51,761 nt of DNA from Dehalococcoides mccartyi (lineage in GTDB: Bacteria > Chloroflexota > Dehalococcoidia > GIF9 > DYGU01). The stretch is from the NCBI GenBank assembly GCA_020724525.1, contig DYGU01000011.1:1-51761 (forward strand), in the 5' to 3' direction. How positions within the stretch are numbered: the first letter of the stretch is position 1; every line of letters begins with the position of its first letter. Positions 13,089 through 24,560 of the stretch are shown piece after piece. Made by a program: the position numbers and the translations under genes. The notes under the pieces were generated by a model. It was not told where the DNA came from, searched no databases, and was given only the letters and a program-made list of their open reading frames with translations.

Positions 13089-14357
13089 ATGGACGGGGCA
13101 AGTTTTATTCATTATTTGACCACTCTACCTGAATATAGACGGCAAATTGTCCACATCGAGCACCTCCCTTACCGTAATGCCCGCTTTGGCAAATTAGACC
13201 AGCCTTTGCCCCCGGCGCTCCAAAAGCACCTTGAGCCTCTGGGGATTTCAGCCTTTTATCGCCATCAAGCCCAGGCAATAAATAGTGCCCGGGCTGGAAA
13301 AAATGTTATGGTAGCCACGCCCAGCGCCAGTGGCAAGACATTATGCTATAACCTGCCCGTATTGGAAGTCCTTTTAAAAGATAGAACCAGTCGAGCTCTC
13401 TACCTCTTTCCGACTAAAGCTTTAGCCCAGGACCAGCTTCGCAGCTTGAAGGAATTAGCTGGCACTGAGATATCTGGATTAGATTGCGCTACTTTTGATG
13501 GTGATACTCCCTGGGAGGAACGGGCTGAAATCAAAAGGCGGGCGCGATTAATACTGTCTAACCCGGATATGCTCCATCTGGGCATTTTGCCCAATCATCA
13601 AGCCTGGTCAAGATGGCTCCGTGGGCTTAAATACGTGGTGATAGACGAAGCCCACAGTTATCGGGGAGTCTTTGGTTCCCAGGTTGCCAATGTTTTGCGT
13701 CGCCTCAGACGTCTATGTTCTTTTTACGGGTCTAATCCCCGGTTTATTTGTTGCTCGGCTACTATTGCCAACCCTGAAGAGCATGCCCGGAAGCTGGTTG
13801 GCTTGCCTTTTGAAGTGATTAAGGATGATGGTTCCCCCCATGGTGAAAAGTTTTTTATCTTCTGGAATCCCCCGATTGTTGACGAAACCAAATTCTCTCG
13901 GCGTAGCCCTAATACAGAGGCTGCCTTCCTGTTTATGGAACTTACTCAGAAAAGGATCCGCAGTCTGGTCTTTGCCCGGACCCGGAAGCTGACCGAACTT
14001 ATCTACCTTTATACTCGGCAACAATTAGGCTCCCCTTTAGCTCAGAAGATTAAGCCGTATCGGGCTGGCTATCTTCCAGAGGACCGACGTCAGATTGAGC
14101 GGGAGCTTTTTGAAGGTGAGTTACTGGGTGTGGTAGCGACCACAGCTTTAGAACTGGGGATTGACATTGGCGATTTGGAAGCCACAGTATTAACTGGATA
14201 TCCCGGGAGTATTGCCAGTACCTGGCAACAGGCTGGTCGGAGTGGTCGGGGGGAGGGGAGTTCTTTAAGTATTCTCATTGCCAGGAAAATCCCCTTGACC
14301 AGTATTTTATGCGCCACCCCGTTTTTTTCTTTAGTAGAAATTTTGAAAATGCCTTAA
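13089..14357 (+). pseudogene. MrfA/YprA-like DEAD/DEAH helicase, N-terminal part (frameshifted)
   Basis: Superfamily 2 helicase half with Walker A ATPSASGKT (GKT at 82-84), motif II VVIDEAHSYRG, motif III SATIANPEEHA and motif VI QAGRSGRG, so both RecA-like lobes are essentially present. The ATG has GGAGGAG upstream. After SLSILIARK the frame goes wrong and ends at 14357; one extra A in the run at 14286-14289 would give ARKNPLDQYFMRHPVFFF, the expected continuation. MrfA is a 3'-5' DNA helicase in repair of DNA damage such as mitomycin adducts. The frameshift could be real or a homopolymer error. Confidence 0.85.
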
Positions 14358-15397
14358 TCAATCCAGATAACCCTCATATTTTGAAGCCCCACCTCTTGTG
14401 TGCTGCCTGGGAAAAGCCATTAACTGAAGAGGATGCCCATTTCTTTGGTGATACCTTTAGCCAGGAGGTTGCTGAACTGGAAAAGGAAGGAAAGCTTAAG
14501 AGGCGGGGAGAGCACTGGTATTTATCTCCAGGGGTAACTTATCCGGCTCAGGGCATTAATATCAGGTCTACCTCAACCAAAAACTTTGCCCTCATTGATA
14601 CTTCTCAGGGTTACGAATTGCTGGAGACCATTGAAAGCAGTTTTGCCTTTTCCCAGGTCCACCCCGGAGCCATTTATCTGCATCAAGGTGAGTCTTATTT
14701 AATTATTGGTCTGGACCTGGAAAGGCGGGTGGCTTTAGCTTCACCAACTGATGCACCTTATTATACTCAGGCTAAGGAAATAACGGATATTCGAATTATT
14801 AGAGCAAATCAGGAGAAGGTCTGCTCTGGAGTGAGGGTTTACTTTGGGGAAGCCGAGGTCACTACCACGGTTATTGGCTTTAAGAAGAAAATGCAGTTTA
14901 CTGAGGAGGTTATTGGTGAGGAACGTTTAGACCTGCCTACCCAGCGTTTTCTAACTCAAGCCTTATGGTGTGACATACCTCAAAAGGCTGTTGACCGTAT
15001 TGCTGAAGTCGGGCTTGACTTTGCCGGTGGACTTCATGCTGCCGAGCATGCCGCAATAAGCATGCTTCCCCTTTTTGCTTTGTGTGACCGCAATGACATT
15101 GGTGGTGTTTCCGCGCCTTTTCATATCGACACAGGTAAAGCCCAAATTTTCATTTATGACGCCTATCCCGGTGGGATTGGCATAGCTGAAAAAGGCTTTG
15201 AAATGATAGCTGAACTATGGCGAGCTACCTTAAAGACCATTGAGGGCTGTCCTTGCCGGGATGGTTGCCCCGGCTGTGTCCACTCGCCCAAATGTGGCAA
15301 CAACAACGAGCCCCTGGACAAAAAAGCCGCCTTAATCCTCCTCCAGGAGCTCCAGCCATTAGAAATTGCTCGGAAGCAGAAAAGAATGACCAAATAG
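14288..15397 (+). pseudogene. MrfA/YprA-like helicase, C-terminal DUF1998 part (frameshifted)
   Basis: Second frame of the split helicase. It reads NPLDQYFMRHPVFFF, then the typical NPDNPHILKPHLLCAA, and ends in the DUF1998/MrfA zinc-binding domain with four cysteines in CPCRDGCPGCVHSPKCG. The first ATG in this frame is 14309. Joined to the N-terminal half the protein would be about 770 residues, close to YprA. Four-cysteine DUF1998 domains also occur in DrmB of DISARM, but the overall architecture here is the housekeeping MrfA type. Confidence 0.85.
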
Positions 15398-15490: not shown

Positions 15491-15832
15491 ATGCCCTTCA
15501 AAATTGGATTAGCCCAGAAACGCAAGAGTTTATTAGAGGAAGAACTAAACAGGATTATCGCGGGGATTAAGGAACGTGGGGTAGAAAAAGTCTTCCTTTT
15601 TGGTTCTTTGGCCTCTGACAAAGTTCACAGGTCCAGTGACCTTGATATTATCGTTGTTCAGAAAACAGCAAAAAGCTTTCTTGATAGATTAGATGAATTT
15701 TATCAATATTTAAACCCCCGCCTTGGGATAGACATACTTGTTTATACCCCGGAGGAGTTTGAGGAAATGAAAAAGACAAATCAATTTATAAAATCGGCTA
15801 TAAAAAACGGAAGAGTTATTTATGAGAGATAA
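15491..15832 (+). CDS. Minimal nucleotidyltransferase (MNT), antitoxin-type
   Basis: 113 residues with the polymerase-beta superfamily pattern G38-S39 in FLFGSLASDK, D50 and D52 in SSDLDIIVV, and a third acidic residue near D81 in GIDILVY. In HEPN/MNT pairs the MNT protein can neutralise the HEPN toxin, in some systems by adding AMP to it. GGAGAG precedes the ATG. It overlaps the HEPN gene by 11 bases, a coupled two-gene unit. Confidence 0.85.
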   Translation: MPFKIGLAQKRKSLLEEELNRIIAGIKERGVEKVFLFGSLASDKVHRSSDLDIIVVQKTAKSFLDRLDEFYQYLNPRLGIDILVYTPEEFEEMKKTNQFIKSAIKNGRVIYER

Positions 15833-16229
15833 AACACCAGAGTCAAAAAGATGGTTTTGGCAAGCAGTTCAAGATTTAGACGATGCTAAATTCAACCTCT
15901 CCGGTAAAAGATATAATGTTGCCTGCTTCCTGGCGCAACAATCAGCGGAGAAGGCTCTAAAGGCCTATCTTCTCCAGAAAGGGGCTGAGGAAGTTTGGGG
16001 ACATTCTACCTCAGAATTATGCAAGGACGCCGAAAGTTTTGATGAAGCCTTTAAGACCATAGCATCAGAAGCCAGCTCACTTGACAAATACTACATTCCT
16101 ACCCGTTACCCCAATGCCTTACCTGGAGGGATACCATCCACCGCCTTTGATGAAAGTGACGCCAACAGAGCTATTTCCTTAGCTGAAAAAGTAATAGACT
16201 TTATAAAATCTAAGTTAGGGGAATTATAA
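15822..16229 (+). CDS. HEPN-domain protein, toxin-type partner
   Basis: 135-residue helical HEPN protein (COG2250 style): RWFWQAVQDLDDAKF, then the AQQSAEKALKAYL helix, and a late YIPTRYPNALPGG. The catalytic RNase motif R-x4-6-H of active HEPN toxins is not apparent, so it may belong to the nucleotide-binding branch or be inactive. It overlaps the MNT gene, and the pair begins the defence-like island. Toxin-antitoxin function is inferred from the family. Confidence 0.82.
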   Translation: MRDKTPESKRWFWQAVQDLDDAKFNLSGKRYNVACFLAQQSAEKALKAYLLQKGAEEVWGHSTSELCKDAESFDEAFKTIASEASSLDKYYIPTRYPNALPGGIPSTAFDESDANRAISLAEKVIDFIKSKLGEL

Positions 16230-16338
16230 AGGTTGGACCTTCACCAAAAAGTGTTCCTCCTCACCTACAACCTAATAGTTAATCATTAACAGCTTACAAA
16301 TGCTTTAATTCTCTCGGTGAGCTTGCCAAAGAAACTAT

Positions 16339-16429
16339 GAGGCTGTGTGAGTAATCACTGCCGCAGATTCAAAATTGCCGAAAACCAGTCCTTCACCAGA
16401 TTCGGACGGGATATTACTCACACAGCCTC
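16339..16429. mobile_element. MITE-like element with perfect 17-bp inverted repeats
   Basis: GAGGCTGTGTGAGTAAT at 16339-16355 and its exact reverse complement at 16413-16429 bound a 91-base unit with no reading frame. The ends resemble insertion-sequence termini, so it may be a miniature element mobilised in trans or a strong structured RNA or terminator. I see no clear target-site duplication in the flanks. Confidence 0.55.
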
Positions 16430-16841
16430 CTAGGGAAATCTCCCTCAGTAGAAGCTCAATCAAGGGAGGGCATTGACCTCAATTGGCTCATTTCATCTCA
16501 TCATTCACAGTAAAAGACAAGACCTTTGGCGAAGACCGTTGCCCTATTGTAATAAAGCGACCGTCTGGCTATTAGAATCGCCTCGTGAGCCAAAATAATT
16601 CTTATTGTTTACCTTGCTGGGTGATGCCCTGCTGATGCCTCGTCAACCCATTTCCTGCTTTGCTGCCCTATCAGGTAACCTCATTTTCCTTCACTCTAAA
16701 CAGATTAGCCATTATACAAAATAGCGTTTTGTGTCTCTTGACCATAAACCACTCGGCTCAAAGCAAGTGCGAGGAAAATTGGAGTTAGACAGCACCTACC
16801 AAAGCACGAGAATTGATATGTGAGTCAACACTAAATTGAGG
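16430..16841 (+). other. Gene-poor stretch with a possible transposase remnant
   Basis: No intact gene. In one plus-strand frame, 16510-16539 reads VKDKTFGEDR, close to the conserved RDVTFGED block near the C-terminus of ISAs1-type transposases; a nearby frame reads RLAIRIA, similar to the following LRNLAI block. The fragments are in different frames with stops, so at best this is a heavily decayed transposase. The rest shows nothing I can identify. Confidence 0.25.
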
Positions 16842-17287: not shown

Positions 17288-17803
17288 ATGGACCAACAGT
17301 ATGCCGAATTAATCTTTGATAGGCCTGTCCATAGATTTCTTCAGAGATTCTTCTTGTCAAATACAGCAATGCAAAGCCTTATTCTAATTTCACCGATTAT
17401 GACCACCTTGGAAGGAACAAGATTTAGCTTAGCCCGAGTATGCCACAAGATTAACCACGACCGAATACCAACCTATGTCATCACCAGAGAACCGGAAGAG
17501 GATTTCCACGAAGAAGCAGTAAAGCTACTCCACACTTCCGATTTTACCGAAGTTAGATTTAATCCATCGCTTCATGCTAAACTGTATATATGTAAACAAG
17601 AGAACGGCGGCTTCGCTCTATTAGGTTCAGGGAACCTTACTCGCAGCTCGATAGAGCGAAATATTGAGATTGGAATTATTATTCGTGACCGGGGTCAGGG
17701 GAGGGAGCTCTTTCACGAATTATTCTATTGGGGTGTAGTGAGACTTAGAACACTTGCTGAAAGCAAGTTGGTCAAAAGAATGACTTATGTTAGGAGGATG
17801 TAA
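17288..17803 (+). CDS. PLD-family nuclease-like protein with one HKD motif
   Basis: 171 residues with a single phospholipase-D active site: H-A-K-L-Y followed by GFALLGSGNLTRSSIERN (H-x-K...G-S-x-N). Single-HKD proteins such as Nuc or the BfiI nuclease domain work as dimers and cleave DNA without metal. It is the first gene of a tight plus-strand run with two ATPases, an unknown protein and an adenine methyltransferase, pointing to a nuclease in a defence module. The stop at 17801-17803 lies one base before the next start. DrmC of DISARM is also PLD-type but longer. Confidence 0.75.
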   Translation: MDQQYAELIFDRPVHRFLQRFFLSNTAMQSLILISPIMTTLEGTRFSLARVCHKINHDRIPTYVITREPEEDFHEEAVKLLHTSDFTEVRFNPSLHAKLYICKQENGGFALLGSGNLTRSSIERNIEIGIIIRDRGQGRELFHELFYWGVVRLRTLAESKLVKRMTYVRRM

Positions 17804-17804
17804 A

Positions 17805-18962
17805 ATGGAATTTAAGGAATGGTTTTGCTTAAAGAATAGAGAAAGCTTTATTATTGACGCCAAGGTTAATCCCACTGATGCCAGATTTTATTTTGGCAGA
17901 GATGAGATAAAGAGAAGGATTCAGAATCAATTAAAGAGGTCTTTTATTGAACCGGGCATCCCCAAAATGATCGTCTATGGTAGCTATGGCTCAGGCAAGA
18001 CCCAGACGCTTTACTACATGCAACACTTTCTCCAAAAGGAGATGCCGGGTGAAAAAGCTTTTACTATTTGTCCTGTTCATGTAGACCTGGAAATGAGGAG
18101 TAAATCTGATCACTACCATTGGCATCTTCAACTCATGGAGAAGCTTGGCAGAGAAACGGTGACCAAGTGGATTGAAAATTTGATTAAGCGTAGCTTACAT
18201 ATTAATGAAGAAGTTAAGGCAATTTTTGGCGATTTGAACCTGGTTGAAGCAGTTCCCCGCATCCGGGAAGGAGGTGACATTGGCTTCGCTGCTTGGCGTT
18301 GGCTTTGTGGGCAACCACTCCCTACGAGGGAATTGGAGCAACTGAAGGTAACCCGAAACTTAGGACAAACCGGCTCTGGTGATTTAGTCAATGCTATGGT
18401 AGGAATAGGTAAGCTTGCCGAAGTTAATAGCGAGAAGATTGTTTTTTTCATGGACGAGGCAGAACAATTCCACAATGTGACTGCACACGATGCAGTCCAA
18501 TACCTCCATGATTACGTGAGGAAGCTATCTGAAAGGGCAAACTCTACCGTAGGCTTTGTCATTTCCAGCTATGGATTGACTGTCGACGATATGCCATCGG
18601 TCTTATCCAGACCAGACATAAGGCAAAGAATTAAAGAAATCAACATTATTCATCTTCCCCCTTTGCCCTCGATTAAAGATGTCCAAATATTTCTGAAAGA
18701 ACTGCTTTCTGAACTAGTTGATAGACCAAAAGCGGAAGCTAAGATACATAATGAAGGATTAGGTGTAGCTCTTGATACCTATCCTCTTAATAGTGCCGCC
18801 TTTGACCGGCTGTGCGATTATGCCTTGGCTGACCCGGCAAAATGTCTTCCACGCAATATTATTAACGCCCTTAATGAAAGCTGCATTACTGCCTGGGACG
18901 AGGGAAAGGCTATTGTTGATGAGAATATTATCGATGAGATTGCTCCTCTTGTATTTGGTTAG
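17805..18962 (+). CDS. AAA/ORC-like ATPase of the defence-like operon
   Basis: 385 residues. Walker A YGSYGSGKTQTL near residue 58 and Walker B KIVFFMDEAEQFHN near 214, followed by a helical C-terminal lid region (PRNIINALNESC...), the layout of ORC/Cdc6-, ExeA- or BrxC-like ATPases. AGGAGG at 17792-17797 is seven bases before the ATG at 17805, so the upstream in-frame ATG at 17787 is rejected. It begins one base after the PLD gene. It may load or drive the HerA-like protein encoded next; that is inference. Confidence 0.72.
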   Translation: MEFKEWFCLKNRESFIIDAKVNPTDARFYFGRDEIKRRIQNQLKRSFIEPGIPKMIVYGSYGSGKTQTLYYMQHFLQKEMPGEKAFTICPVHVDLEMRSKSDHYHWHLQLMEKLGRETVTKWIENLIKRSLHINEEVKAIFGDLNLVEAVPRIREGGDIGFAAWRWLCGQPLPTRELEQLKVTRNLGQTGSGDLVNAMVGIGKLAEVNSEKIVFFMDEAEQFHNVTAHDAVQYLHDYVRKLSERANSTVGFVISSYGLTVDDMPSVLSRPDIRQRIKEINIIHLPPLPSIKDVQIFLKELLSELVDRPKAEAKIHNEGLGVALDTYPLNSAAFDRLCDYALADPAKCLPRNIINALNESCITAWDEGKAIVDENIIDEIAPLVFG

Positions 18963-18969
18963 GCTATAA

Positions 18970-20349
18970 ATGAAGAGGTTTTCAATTAAACCGCGCTGCC
19001 CACAAGCAAAGGAAATATTGATTGGACTGACCAAGGATATATCTTCAGAGAGGGTGTTTCTGGGGCGATTGACTGAAGCCGGCCCAGTTGTTTTGGCTAA
19101 CTTCGACCTCTCTTCGGAGCATGTTATCGCCATCTTTGGGAAAAGAGGCTCCGGAAAGTCATTTACATTAGGGAGTATCTTAGAGGGACTGTGCACTCAG
19201 CAAAATAATTCATCTATATCACAAATTTCCAAAACTAAAGGCATTCTTCTTTTTGACACTTTAGGCATATTTCAGTGGACAAATATATCTCTTTCTCCAG
19301 ACTCAAGCCAGAAGATAGTTCGTGAACAGCTATCTCAGCACAAAGGCTGGAATATTCATCCTGAGCCTTTGGATGTCCTTATTTGGGTGCCTGAAGACGG
19401 CAATGTGAATGTGGTTACTGGAATAGCTAAGAAGTTTACAGTAAATACCTCAGGCCTTGATGCCTCCGACTGGGGATATTTGCTTGGGCTGGATATTTTC
19501 CAGGACCGTATGGGGCAGCTCCTTAGCGATGCCTACATAAAAGTTGTATGGGAAGGGTGGCACGATACCAGTAAATTACATCCTCCAAAAGCAGATTATT
19601 CTTTAGATGACCTCATAAACTGTGTTAAGCGGGACGCGGAGCTCCAAGAAAGCTATCAATCAGAGACCCGCCGAGCTATTATGCAGCAGCTTGCCACCTA
19701 TCAGCGCAACCCGCCTTTTCAGACTTCGGGGACAAAGCTGGCTGAGCTTCTTCGCCCAGGACACTTAAGTGTATTGGTAATGAATAAGATGTCCGATGAG
19801 CTAAGGTTTGTTCTCCTAACTGCCTTAACCAGGAAAATTATTCAGGCACGAATTGAAGCCTCCGAAATTGAAAAACAACTCCAGATTTTACCAACCCTTT
19901 CACCACAAGAAAAACAATTATTAGAGAATAAGCTAGCCAATTCTATCCCACCCTCTTGGATAGCCATTGATGAAGCACAAAACGCCTTACCTGCAGAACG
20001 ACGAACCACCGCCTCAGACATTTTGGTTAAATTGGTTCGCGAGGGCAGGAACTACGGTTTATCTTTTGTATTTACCACCCAACAACCTTCGGCTATAGAC
20101 CAACGCATCCTAGCCCAGGTAGATACCATTATTGCCCATAAACTTACAGTGCAGAGCGATATTGACTATGTCAGAAAAAACCTGAAGTCAAGCCTGCCCG
20201 AAGAAGTCATGTATGGCAATAGTGTTCTTTCTTTTGATAGTCTGTTGAGGGCTTTAGACATTGGTCAAGCCCTCGTTTCCAATACTGAAAGCGAAAGAGC
20301 TTTTATTTTGGATATTCGCCCTAGAGTGAGTGTTCACGGAGGCTTCTAA
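18970..20349 (+). CDS. HerA/DUF87-like ATPase
   Basis: 459 residues of the HerA-FtsK class. Walker A FGKRGSGKSFTLGSI near residue 57, the GILLFDTLGIFQW strand seen in DUF87 proteins, Walker B SWIAIDEAQNALP and FVFTTQQPSAID as sensor. An N-terminal barrel-like segment (about residues 10-45, FLGRLTEAGPVVLANFDL) fits the HAS-barrel that HerA uses to bind partners. HerA hexamers pump DNA and pair with nucleases such as NurA, Sir2 or DUF4297 in repair and defence. It lies eight bases after the ATPase. Confidence 0.8.
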   Translation: MKRFSIKPRCPQAKEILIGLTKDISSERVFLGRLTEAGPVVLANFDLSSEHVIAIFGKRGSGKSFTLGSILEGLCTQQNNSSISQISKTKGILLFDTLGIFQWTNISLSPDSSQKIVREQLSQHKGWNIHPEPLDVLIWVPEDGNVNVVTGIAKKFTVNTSGLDASDWGYLLGLDIFQDRMGQLLSDAYIKVVWEGWHDTSKLHPPKADYSLDDLINCVKRDAELQESYQSETRRAIMQQLATYQRNPPFQTSGTKLAELLRPGHLSVLVMNKMSDELRFVLLTALTRKIIQARIEASEIEKQLQILPTLSPQEKQLLENKLANSIPPSWIAIDEAQNALPAERRTTASDILVKLVREGRNYGLSFVFTTQQPSAIDQRILAQVDTIIAHKLTVQSDIDYVRKNLKSSLPEEVMYGNSVLSFDSLLRALDIGQALVSNTESERAFILDIRPRVSVHGGF

Positions 20350-20352
20350 CTA

Positions 20353-21609
20353 ATGATCGTAATCAGAGCTTTGGAGAATACTAACCGCTCCATGCAACGC
20401 CTGGGGTTCTTAAAATACCTAGCCTCCAGATGTGCCGCTAGAGATACTTCAAATCTGACAGTTTTGGGGCAGGAATTGATTAGCACTGTAACTCAGAAAG
20501 TGAAGTTGTCAGTAAAACCGGAGATTTTGCGCTATATTGAAAGGAGGCTTACCGACCGAGCTTATCAAGAACTAAGGAAAATCGCCTCCAAAAATCCAGA
20601 ATTTCTTACTCTGGAAATCCAGGATGTTTATCTTTCCTCAACAGAACTACCTTCGCGAACCGGGAAATTGGTTCATGATGACTGGAGAAAGTTCCCTTAC
20701 TTTCTCTCTTCCCTGGGCTTAATGCGTAAGGGACTTTACTCTTTAGTGGTTCGAGGTTATGCATTATTGAAACTGGTCTCCCCACAGGAAATTACCGCTT
20801 TTAAGGAATATTCATCTCATTTCAACCCCTTTAAACTGGACTTGAAACAAAAAATGCTGTTTTTGTTTCAACTTCTTGAGCACGACGGGGACATTCTGCA
20901 GCCTCTATATTCCCAAATTCTAGCTGAAAATGGCTCTTTTAGCGACCGTGATGCTGGCGACCTTCTCCCCGATATTTTCCGAGGACTGGAGAAAAGGCTA
21001 AGAACCAGGGTGATAAGTGGCAGTGATATACTTCGCCTCCAACGCCTGCTTAGCACTGCATCAAATGTTGAAAAATGGAAAGGAAAACCCTATACTGGCA
21101 AAGGTGCCAGGGAAGAATCTATTACAGTCAGACTTGAACCTTTGGTAGATATTGGGCTTCTGGAAAAGAAAGACCCTTGTGCTTATAAATATCACCTTTC
21201 CCTACCCGGCAAAGCTTTCTTCCATTTCTTTACTGCTTCCGACGATATAGATAGCTTTTTAGGCAAATATTTCTTTCATAGCCTCAATTCAAGTTTTAAA
21301 TTGGGTGCAAAGACCACTACTAATAGTAACTTCATTCTAAACCAGCTCTACCAAAGCTATGACAGCCTTAAAAGCCCCTGGGGCTACGCCCCTCTGACTG
21401 ATGTTGCCCTTCTTGCTGGCATTAACAGCCTGGCAGATAAAAAAGTTTACTTTGAGATTAATGATGCCATTGCTCTCTTGAAGACTTTTCAGAAACAGCA
21501 ACCCGAGGCAATAAGGTTCAATATTAACCGCATGGGGAAACTGGCTTATGTCGAATTCATTATCCCTCCTACTAACACACAAATTCAGCCTGCCTTAAGG
21601 AACAAATAA
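20353..21609 (+). CDS. Unknown protein with a probable winged-helix region, defence-like operon
   Basis: 418 residues, mostly helical. Around residues 255-290 the segment LEPLVDIGLLEKKDP...YHLSLPGKAFFHFF looks like the recognition helix and wing of a winged-helix domain, which suggests DNA or protein binding. No catalytic motif is evident. It starts three bases after the HerA stop and ends two bases before the methyltransferase ATG, so it belongs to the same transcript. I recognise no named family; it may be the specificity or adaptor subunit of the module (speculative). Confidence 0.6.
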   Translation: MIVIRALENTNRSMQRLGFLKYLASRCAARDTSNLTVLGQELISTVTQKVKLSVKPEILRYIERRLTDRAYQELRKIASKNPEFLTLEIQDVYLSSTELPSRTGKLVHDDWRKFPYFLSSLGLMRKGLYSLVVRGYALLKLVSPQEITAFKEYSSHFNPFKLDLKQKMLFLFQLLEHDGDILQPLYSQILAENGSFSDRDAGDLLPDIFRGLEKRLRTRVISGSDILRLQRLLSTASNVEKWKGKPYTGKGAREESITVRLEPLVDIGLLEKKDPCAYKYHLSLPGKAFFHFFTASDDIDSFLGKYFFHSLNSSFKLGAKTTTNSNFILNQLYQSYDSLKSPWGYAPLTDVALLAGINSLADKKVYFEINDAIALLKTFQKQQPEAIRFNINRMGKLAYVEFIIPPTNTQIQPALRNK

Positions 21610-21611
21610 TA

Positions 21612-22184
21612 ATGAAAAAGAACAGGGCTCAACCCCAATCCAGACATCTTCATCAGATAGAAATAGATGCTAAATTTTTTGTCCACAGGCTGACTCAGGC
21701 TGTGGAGAAGCTGAGAAAGCCAATAAGGCAATCTCTACAGACAACCATCAGCCGTGACCCCACTTTTAAGAAAGGGCTTGAGGCTTGGGCAAAAAAGCAG
21801 GGGATTGCCAACTTCGCCGATGAAGCCTTCTATAATGCTACTGCTCGACAGCTTGTTTACCGCATCCTGGGCAAAATCCTCTTCTATCAAAGCTTGCAAG
21901 GGCATAAAAAGGAGCTTGACCCAATAGACTTCTCTGGTCTGGATATTGCCTTGGTAATCCCCCGGCTTTGGGAATGTTTTGAAAAAGCTCGTCAGATTGA
22001 CTATCAAGCCGTGTTTGGAACCGATATCTGCGAACAGATCCCCTTCCCCGAGCCGGCAGTTCAAGAATTGTGCCAACTCATAAGCGACCTTAATAATTAC
22101 AACTTTTCCACTATGCCCCATGATGTGATGGGACAGGTCTTTGAACAACTTATTCCACCTGAGGAACGACATTCTTTAGGGTAA
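21612..22184 (+). pseudogene. Adenine methyltransferase, N-terminal domain, ending at an in-frame TAA
   Basis: 190-residue helical N-terminal domain resembling HsdM/Eco57I-type methyltransferases, ending FEQLIPPEERHSLG before TAA at 22182-22184. In the family this reads ...R..LGQ(Y/F)(Y/F)TP, and the frame continues immediately as YFTPEDLVDF, so TAA sits where CAA (Gln) is expected: a single C-to-T change. The ATG follows the previous gene by two bases. Without readthrough this fragment has no catalytic domain. Confidence 0.75.
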
Positions 22185-24560
22185 TACTTCACCCCTGAGG
22201 ATTTGGTTGACTTTATTAATGCCTTCTGCATCCGAAGCAAGGATTATAATGTTATTGACCCTACTTGTGGCAGCGGCACCTTTCTGCTTCGGGCATATGA
22301 TAGATTGAACTTCTTTGGGCAGCGAAATCATGGAGAGCTTCTCAATCAGCTTTGGGGAGTGGATATTGCTCATTTCCCTGCTGAACTGGCGACGATAAAC
22401 CTCTATCGTCAGAATTTAGCTGACGTGGCTAACTTCCCTCGCATAGTTCGCAAAGACTTCTTTGAGGTAAAAGCAGGCGATATATTTGACTTTCCTGCTC
22501 CAGAGCCAGAAACTGACCTATTAGTCTCTGAAAAGCTTCCTGTGTTTGATGCTGCTGTAGGTAATTTCCCTTATATCAGGCAAGAACTTATTGAAAGGAG
22601 TGTCAAAGGTTATAAGCAAAATTTGGAGCGAGTTCTGGCTGAGGATTGGCTTAATGATTATCCAGAGTTTTTTGAAAAGGGCGGGATCCCTCGGCTCTCA
22701 GGTCAAGCCGATATTTATGCCTATTTGTTTTTCCACACCGTCCGCTTCATAAGGGAAGGTGGAAGGATGGGCTTTATTACCTCTAATGCCTGGCTTGATG
22801 TCGCCTATGGGTATGAGCTACAAAAATTCTTCCTTAAGAACTTCAAAATCATAGCCATTTTGGAATCCCGGTATGAGCCTTGGTTTGAGCAATCGGCGGT
22901 TAACACTGTGGTTACTATCCTTGAGCGTTGCTCCGATAAAGAGGAGCGGGACCAGCATCTGGTCAAGTTTGTCAAAGTAAAAAGGAAACTCCGTGAGCTT
23001 ATCCCCAGGGATATGAAGCTTGATGCCATGAACCGCTGGTCGGGAATAGACAGGCTTGTTGCCAAAATAGAAAATGCCGGTGGTGAGTATTGGCAAATTA
23101 TAGGTGACAAGTCAGTCAATATCCTCAAAGGGCATAAGACCTACGAAGATATGGATTTCCGCATCAGGGTGAAAAGACAGGTTGAACTGCTTAACGAATT
23201 GGAAAAAGCAGGCAAAATGGTGAAGTGGGGAGTTTATCTCAGAGCGCCGGAAGTTTACTTTGAGATTCTGGAGAAATGCAAAGATAAGCTCGTGCCCTTA
23301 AATAACAGGACAAAGATTATTGGTGGAATTATAACAGGCGATAATAATTTCTTCTATTTAAGCAAGGAGAAACTTAGCCATCATGAGATCGAGGATGAGT
23401 TTCTAGTGGATGTAGTGAAGACCCCGCGGGAAATAAAAACTATTTCTTTTTCTTCAAAGGGTACTAAGTACAAATTATTGAATGTTCAACTGCCTAAATC
23501 AGAGCTTTATGGGAAAAAAGTAAAAAGATATATCGAAGAAGGAGAAAACCGAAAAATCGATGGAAAATCTTCTTTCAAAGACAAAGAAACTTGGTATAGA
23601 TTGAGAATAAAGCGAGCACCTTTATTATGGCCAGACTTGAGAAACGATATTCATATATGTCATATCAATAAAGATTTGATTCCCTTTGAGCACAATTTTT
23701 ATGGAATAATACCTATTAAAAAAGAAGACGAAGAAATATTGTGTTCCTTTTTAAATTCTTCAATTTTATGGAATTTTCTAGAAGTAGAAGGCAGAGTTGC
23801 TTTAGGTGAGGGTGCAATAAGATTGGTAAAGGAGGATCTAGAGAAAATCCCAATAATAGCCCCAGATCTGATTTGCGAGCCTGGAAAACAAGAAATCATC
23901 CAAGCCTTCTCAAACCTCCTAAAGCGCCCCATTAAGTCTATCTTTGAAGAGGTGAAGATGGCTGACCGGCAAAAGCTGGATAGCCTGATTTTAGAAGCTA
24001 TTGGGCTTGACTCCAACAAATACCTTCAACCGCTTTATGAAGGGTTAACCCAACTGGTGCGAGAAAGGCTAGAACTTGGGAGAATGAGAGGAAGGATAAA
24101 AAAGGCAAAGTCGGAGAGAAACCTGGAGAGAATAAAAGAACAAGTGATAGCAGAGTTATTACCCAATGGCGTCAAAAAATTCCCGGAGGATTTTCGTGAG
24201 CCTTCAAAAGCTGGCTTCTTTGAACTGGATATCCCTACTGAGCCTCTCAAACTTGAACCACCTTTCTTCGGTAAGCAAAAAGTAATCTCTGACAGTGGTT
24301 GGTGTCATGAGGCTAAGAGCCCAGCTGAAGCCAAATTCATTATCTATGCTCAAGCAGGCGGTCATACCAGAGTAGCTATTCCTAAAGATGGTGTAGTCCT
24401 TCTCAAAATGGTGTCTAATTACGAAAGATATCTGAAGGAACTCAAAGAAAACCTTTTCAATGCCTTTTCAATTCGTATTTTTGACTATAAACAAGCTCAA
24501 GCTCTCACAGGGATAGTCTTTAAGGAATTAGGATTACCAGAATCTGTGGAAAAGGAATAG
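22185..24560 (+). pseudogene. Adenine methyltransferase, catalytic and C-terminal domains after the in-frame stop
   Basis: Same frame as the preceding fragment. It carries SAM motif I DPTCGSGTFLLRAYD and a motif IV variant VGNFPYIRQE, where NPPY is usual and the second residue is Phe. A long C-terminal region (from about 23300) resembles the target-recognition part of type IIG/Eco57I enzymes; no PD-(D/E)XK nuclease motif is obvious. The first possible restart is TTG 22203, which would lack the N-terminal domain. Whole protein about 980 residues. It would modify adenines in host DNA while the PLD/ATPase proteins attack unmodified DNA (inference). Confidence 0.78.

What the first reader, a model, noticed from the sequence alone, without database searches (positions are those of the whole stretch)
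17288..24560. Candidate undescribed defence module: PLD nuclease, AAA ATPase, HerA ATPase, winged-helix protein and adenine methyltransferase
Five genes run head to tail with gaps of 1 to 8 bases, so they are one operon. The parts (modification methylase, single-HKD nuclease, two unrelated NTPases, an adaptor-like protein) fit a restriction-modification-like antiviral system. It recalls DISARM (PLD plus methylase) and HerA-based systems, but the DISARM helicase DrmA and DrmB are missing, and known HerA pairs have Sir2, DUF4297 or NurA rather than PLD and a methylase. I do not recognise this gene set as a named system.
Basis: partly seen in the sequence, partly recalled or inferred. Interest (0 to 1): 0.82.

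Follow-up and report, generated by a model that had tools for sequence, protein, structure and literature searches.

The report
HerA–PLD defence operon, broken methylase
A rare five-gene bacterial operon, probably a DNA-restriction defence that pairs a BfiI-like nuclease with two ATP motors, a DNA-reader and a DNA methylase, recurs in the same order in several bacterial phyla and matches no named system I could find; in this genome a stop codon has broken the methylase.

Summary
The operon is real, with one correction. PLD, AAA, HerA and winged-helix genes are intact and closely packed (17288-21609). The fifth gene is not one ORF: an in-frame TAA at 22182-22184 replaces a Gln that all nine comparable homologues keep (motif GQYFT), splitting the adenine methylase into 190 + 785 aa. 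The gene order recurs in independent contigs labelled as at least five phyla. The four core proteins co-vary strongly (r 0.87-0.98). No Pfam, NCBIfam or PADLOC family describes the winged-helix protein, and no named system contains the set. Nothing in the literature searched describes it; the nearest kind is the "HerA/FtsK capture" systems (PMC10853773). New here: the methylase's C-terminal domain, confidently modelled with no PDB match, also tags PC4, Mrr_N and HARE-HTH proteins of the same loci, sometimes replacing the methylase. The methylase is broken in the window, L015, L022 and L026. In the window and L022 the nuclease and motors are intact, which argues against classical self-protection by methylation. 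Best reading: a modular ATP-driven DNA-interception nuclease with interchangeable recognition subunits. Defence is inferred from parts and neighbours, not shown.

The parts
17288..17803 (+). Single-HKD PLD-family nuclease, 171 aa; H96, K98, S114, N116 and E127 invariant in 16 homologues
   Evidence: Pfam PLDc_2 above cut-off, RE_NgoFVII just below; family profile matches BfiI (2c1l) and SauUSI (7clg); alignment A6
17787..18962 (+). AAA ATPase (Orc/Cdc6- or BrxC/D-like), 391 aa from the first ATG; Walker A GSYGSGKT and Walker B MDE intact
   Evidence: Pfam BrxC_BrxD 9e-5, just below cut-off; PADLOC BrxD matched by 7 of 18 family members; invariant residues in A5
18970..20349 (+). HerA/DUF87 translocase, 459 aa, short N-terminus, C-terminal RPRVSVHGGF signature conserved in the family
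   Evidence: Pfam DUF87 2e-11; PADLOC HerA 6e-19; A4, 19 homologues at 45-63% identity
20353..21609 (+). Tandem winged-helix, adaptor-like protein, 418 aa, no named family
   Evidence: No Pfam/PADLOC/NCBIfam match; AlphaFold2 model pLDDT 92; weak PDB matches are largely winged-helix proteins incl. ORC, Cdt1, Nt.BspD6I, MukE, BrxA, none below E 0.001
21612..22184 (+). Methylase N-terminal helical fragment, 190 aa, ending at the premature stop
   Evidence: 40-57% identical to residues ~160-345 of full-length homologues
22182..22184 (+). Premature TAA in place of a Gln codon (LG-Q-YFTP) conserved in all nine comparable homologues
22203..24560 (+). Methylase catalytic region and target-recognition region (785-aa ORF, TTG start): motif I DPTCGSGTF, motif IV NFPY
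   Evidence: Pfam Eco57I 1e-15 and N6_Mtase 5e-8; PADLOC type IIG 3e-50; motif check
24093..24557 (+). Methylase C-terminal domain, about 155 aa, shared with PC4-, Mrr_N- and HARE-HTH-containing proteins of related loci; proposed docking tag
   Evidence: model pLDDT 93; no PDB fold or sequence match

Best explanation
The locus encodes a rare, modular, ATP-driven DNA-interception (restriction) machine. Proposed steps, all inferred from domains and gene context: the tandem winged-helix protein and the Orc/Cdc6-like AAA ATPase place the complex on DNA; HerA pumps the DNA; the PLD nuclease cuts it in a BfiI/SauUSI-like way. Which DNA is engaged is set by a recognition subunit carrying the shared C-terminal domain, usually an N6-adenine methylase with a target-recognition region and in other loci PC4, Mrr_N or HARE-HTH proteins. 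Shown: conserved order, co-variation, intact active-site motifs of PLD/AAA/HerA, the shared C-terminal domain, and the premature stop. In this genome the methylase arm is probably off, so any remaining activity would be methylation-independent.
For: Conserved operon PLD-AAA-HerA-wH-methylase in L014, L015, L016, L019, L020, L021 and L024, labelled Chloroflexota, Myxococcota, Planctomycetota, Verrucomicrobiota and Acidobacteriota, with intergenic gaps mostly -4 to +25 nt. Distances of the four core proteins correlate at r 0.87-0.98 over 11 loci, 0 of 2000 permutations. PLD catalytic residues invariant in 16 proteins, nearest solved relatives BfiI and SauUSI. HerA and AAA Walker motifs invariant. 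C-terminal domain shared by the methylase and by PC4/Mrr_N/HARE proteins; present in all 12 close-group loci whose contigs reach far enough, plus a remnant in L022. Defence and mobile neighbours: DRT4 beside L017, PDC-M61B and an LmuB/AriA-like ATPase beside L015, tyrosine-recombinase homologues near six loci, HEPN-MNT pair beside the window operon.
Against: No activity was measured and no phage resistance is known. Nearly all loci are metagenome-assembled, so some taxon labels may be wrong (L014 and L017 are close to each other but labelled as different phyla). The docking role of the C-terminal domain is inferred only from its distribution. Three distant loci (L027, L028, L030) lack that domain, and L011 and L029 lack a detectable PLD gene. 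No fold match supports a specific role for the winged-helix protein.
Confidence: 0.5

Rival explanations
1. A classical restriction-modification system: the methylase protects host sites and the HerA/AAA-driven PLD nuclease cuts unmodified DNA.
For: The methylase matches type IIG REase-MTase profiles over most of its length and keeps motif I and a NFPY motif IV in intact homologues; operon layout is RM-like.
Against: In the window and in L022 the nuclease and both motors are intact while the methylase is broken. L027, L028 and L030 have PLD, AAA and HerA with no methylase detected.
Confidence: 0.2
2. The operon in this genome is a decaying relic: the premature stop is the first visible lesion and the system is no longer functional.
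For: Premature stop here; other family loci also carry lesions: L026 nonsense, L015 motif-I deletion and AAA frameshift, L022 deletion, L012 wH frameshift, L018 PLD truncation.
Against: Four core genes keep full length and all invariant catalytic residues; the 785-codon frame after the stop is open, so the stop is recent or is a sequence error.
Confidence: 0.15
3. Not defence: a mobile-element or DNA-transfer/segregation module using HerA for its own DNA.
For: Tyrosine-recombinase homologues near six loci; a MITE-like inverted repeat upstream of the window operon; HerA relatives serve in DNA transfer and segregation.
Against: No relaxase, replication or transfer genes were seen to travel with the operon; no match in plasmid (72,556 records), phage (50,697) or viral-contig collections; a methylase and a BfiI-like nuclease fit restriction better.
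Confidence: 0.12

Closest known systems
HerA/FtsK capture systems, Orc/CDC6-coupled class (Rakesh, Aravind & Krishnan 2024, PMC10853773)
   Same: HerA translocase in one operon with an Orc/Cdc6-like AAA ATPase, a fast-evolving multi-winged-helix protein and a nuclease; same proposed logic of intercepting invader DNA.
   Different: Published class uses PD-(D/E)XK REases with an inactive REase inserted in the Orc/CDC6 protein; here the nuclease is PLD, the 391-aa AAA protein carries no recognised REase, and an N6-methylase belongs to the unit. PLD is not mentioned in that paper's main text.
DISARM
   Same: PLD nuclease (DrmC-like C-terminal half) plus DNA methylase.
   Different: No DrmA/DrmB helicase pair in the operon; HerA and AAA instead; PLD far below the DrmC cut-off (33.5 vs 133 bits).
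MADS (methylation-associated defence)
   Same: N6-methylase (MAD2-like, E 5e-15 to 1e-28) and an ATPase matching the short mad8 profile.
   Different: MAD2 26.9 vs cut-off 720 bits; none of mad1 and mad3-mad7 matched; mad8 profile also matches unrelated ATPases.
BREX and BREX-related (BR, BRC) systems (PMC12839542)
   Same: PglX-like methylase; BrxC/D-like ATPases; BRC also pairs HerA with Orc/Cdc6 ATPase and wHTH.
   Different: No PglZ, no BrxC/DUF499/DUF6079 giant ATPase, no helicase in this operon; nuclease is PLD.
HerA-Sir2, HerA-DUF4297, NurA-HerA
   Same: HerA-family hexameric motor domain.
   Different: Partner effector is PLD; HerA scores 36-51 bits against cut-offs of 800-970.
BfiI / SauUSI PLD restriction nucleases
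   Same: PLD nuclease domain with HxK...N motif.
   Different: 171-aa stand-alone subunit without BfiI's DNA-binding domain or SauUSI's helicase.

Membership tests
HerA/FtsK capture, Orc/CDC6-coupled class | HerA/FtsK gene next to an Orc/CDC6-type AAA ATPase | tested here: inconclusive
   HerA adjacent to AAA wherever the contig covers both genes; the AAA has only weak Orc/Cdc6 (E 0.03) and BrxC/D (9e-5) matches
HerA/FtsK capture, Orc/CDC6-coupled class | Inactive REase inserted in the Orc/CDC6 protein plus an active PD-(D/E)XK REase | tested here: not met
   No REase match in AAA or elsewhere in the operon; nuclease is PLD
[quoted passage not shown]
   Model pLDDT 92 with weak, mostly winged-helix PDB matches, none below E 0.001
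DISARM | DrmA helicase and DrmB (DUF1998) | tested here: not met
   Absent from the operon; the upstream MrfA-like helicase (13089-15397, frameshifted) has MrfA/HRQ1 domains
DISARM | DrmC PLD protein above curated cut-off | tested here: not met
   33.5 bits vs cut-off 133
MADS | mad1-mad8 gene set | tested here: not met
   Only partial mad2- and mad8-type matches among operon proteins
BREX | PglZ and BrxC with PglX above cut-off | tested here: not met
   No PglZ match; PglX models 17-28 bits vs cut-offs of 400-900
HerA-Sir2 / HerA-DUF4297 / NurA-HerA | Named HerA equivalog with its Sir2, DUF4297 or NurA partner | tested here: not met
   HerA 36-51 bits vs cut-offs 800-970; no such partner in the operon
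Type IIG / RM methylase | Intact N6-methylase with motifs I and IV | tested here: not met
   Motifs present but the frame is interrupted at 22182 in the window; intact in L014, L016, L019, L020, L021, L024
Type IIG / RM methylase | 6mA at a specific motif in the host genome | not testable with these tools
   No reads or modification data
Antiviral defence system | Protection against phage or plasmid | not testable with these tools
   Only neighbourhood evidence

The most novel reading that the evidence does not exclude
A previously undescribed family of plug-in restriction machines: a fixed PLD-AAA-HerA-winged-helix cleavage core to which a new C-terminal docking domain connects interchangeable DNA-recognition subunits (N6-methylase, PC4, Mrr_N, HARE-HTH), so that methylation is one optional recognition mode and not the self-protection mechanism.
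Probability: 0.33. Interest if true: 0.8.

Novelty: new variant of a known kind. Interest (0 to 1): 0.57.

Why it matters
If it restricts DNA, this operon links three lineages usually treated apart: HerA capture systems, BfiI/SauUSI-type PLD nucleases and BREX/type IIG methylases. A shared C-terminal domain that swaps a methylase for non-catalytic DNA-binding proteins would explain how one nuclease core changes its targets. It also makes a specific question testable: is the methylase in such operons a protector or a sensor? Genomes with a broken methylase and intact nuclease suggest the latter.

Tried and rejected
Viral contigs, plasmids and phages gave no relatives. A search of the phylum with the three-row winged-helix profile found only 3 of 400 genomes, and a search of another class found none, so the family is rare. 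The idea that the ~160-aa N-terminal domain of full-length methylases is a nuclease lost in the window: it aligns with the REase part of a type IIG profile, but I see no ExK motif in nine sequences and it has no solved relative, so at most an inactive REase-like domain. The idea that methylase lesions exceed chance: 4 of 7 lesions fall in the methylase where length predicts 31%, P 0.13, not significant. MADS membership by the mad8 hit: rejected, because the profile also hits unrelated ATPases. Treating the upstream MrfA-like helicase as DrmA: rejected. The viral fold search of the winged-helix model gave nothing below E 0.001.
Full report
Observation. The window holds four intact, tightly packed + strand genes: PLD 17288-17803, AAA 17787-18962, HerA 18970-20349 and winged-helix 20353-21609. 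The fifth gene, an N6-adenine methylase, is interrupted. Its frame runs 21612-24560 with a single internal TAA at 22182-22184. Homologues read LGQYFTP where the window reads LG-stop-YFTP, and all nine comparable sequences have Gln, so a CAA to TAA change is the simplest origin. Among the stops in the window with at least 120 open codons on both sides, this is the only one I found that splits one homologous protein; others I could place, such as the HerA stop at 20347, are gene ends. Re-initiation at the TTG at 22203 could make a two-chain protein, but the break falls in a conserved cofactor-side motif, so full activity is doubtful (inference). Without reads a sequencing error cannot be excluded.

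What the proteins are. PLD matches PLDc_2 above cut-off, and the family profile's only PDB matches are BfiI and SauUSI. H96, K98, S114, N116 and E127 are invariant in 16 homologues, so a single-HKD nuclease is the best reading. AAA is weakly BrxC/D- and Orc/Cdc6-like with invariant Walker motifs. HerA is a DUF87 protein with a short N-terminus. The winged-helix protein matches no family; its AlphaFold2 model is confident (pLDDT 92), and its weak PDB matches are largely winged-helix proteins, including Nt.BspD6I and BrxA. The methylase is Eco57I/N6_Mtase with motif I DPTCGSGTF and an unusual NFPY motif IV, conserved in the family. The window, L012 and L026 lack all or most of the ~160-aa N-terminal domain of other members.

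Recurrence. A profile of three HerA proteins retrieved 19 loci from 84,980 genomes. L018 and L028 are the same contigs as two genomes of the window's own order found earlier, and both are labelled Dehalococcoidia. The complete order PLD-AAA-HerA-wH-methylase is present in L014, L015, L016, L019, L020, L021 and L024; L012, L013 and L017 fit but are cut by contig ends or frameshifts. Labels span Chloroflexota, Myxococcota, Planctomycetota, Verrucomicrobiota and Acidobacteriota; most are metagenome bins, so labels are provisional. Pairwise distances of HerA, wH, AAA and PLD correlate at r 0.87-0.98 over 11 loci, none of 2000 permutations reaching this, as expected of one co-inherited unit. Three distant loci (L027, L028, L030) have the nuclease-motor core with no methylase, plus BrxC/D-like ATPases.

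A shared C-terminal domain. The last ~150 residues of the methylase also occur in other proteins of these loci: four with PC4 domains (L015, L016, L020, L024), one with HARE-HTH and Mrr_N (L016), two with Mrr_N (L011, L018), and two with no recognised second domain (L018, L029). In L011, L018 and L029 they stand where the methylase would be. The domain's model is confident (pLDDT 93) and has no PDB fold match below E 0.001 and no convincing sequence match. Since its recognised partners are DNA-binding modules, I propose that it docks recognition subunits to the core; this is inference.

Methylase lesions. The methylase is broken by different lesions in the window (nonsense), L026 (a different nonsense, Tyr to TAG), L015 (in-frame loss of motif I) and L022 (internal deletion with frameshift). 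Its length alone could explain the excess (P 0.13). The informative point is that in the window and L022 PLD, AAA, HerA and wH remain intact, which classical self-protection would not tolerate unless the nuclease is silent.

Comparison. No PADLOC, NCBIfam or Pfam model covers the set, and DISARM, MADS, BREX and the known HerA pairs each fail a defining feature. The nearest published kind is the Orc/CDC6-coupled HerA/FtsK capture class (PMC10853773), from which this differs in nuclease type, methylase and layout. The BREX-related capture system (PMC12839542) shares HerA, ORC/Cdc6 ATPase and wHTH but is built on PglZ. Literature searches found no paper describing this set; the library is open-access only.

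Verdict. A real, rare, undescribed operon family, most likely a DNA-restriction defence of the HerA-capture kind with PLD as nuclease and swappable recognition subunits; in this genome the methylase is broken. Function is not demonstrated.

Noticed in passing
window 13089-15397 (+): MrfA/Hrq1-like (YprA-family) helicase split over two frames (ORFs 13089-14357 and 14309-15397), apparently one frameshift near 14250-14360.
   Followed up: partly
window 15491-16229 (+): Nucleotidyltransferase (MNT) and HEPN genes, a likely toxin-antitoxin pair, next to the operon.
   Followed up: partly
window 16335-16433: MITE-like element with 21-nt inverted ends (95% complementary); a second paired copy on contig 8 and a single end on contig 13 of the same genome.
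   Followed up: partly
L014 543-1622; L021 2857-4002: PLD nuclease fused to an N-terminal Schlafen AlbA_2 domain; PLD proteins of similar length occur in L017, L022, L023.
   Followed up: partly
L028 910-2679 and L030 13340-14572 (-): BrxC/D-family ATPase next to a diverged PLD-AAA-HerA core, strong in L028 (2e-57), weak in L030: a possible bridge to BREX.
   Followed up: partly
L014 10486-10959; L021, L022, L027: Small Cys-rich protein downstream of a second BrxC/D-like AAA in four loci; the L022 copy has a weak HARE-HTH match.
   Followed up: partly
L017 802-2394 (-): DRT4 reverse transcriptase (PADLOC 2e-185), a known defence gene, beside the operon.
   Followed up: no
L015 17193-20938: Two genes downstream, the second a PADLOC candidate defence family PDC-M61B (2e-50) and the first weakly PDC-M61A.
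   Followed up: no
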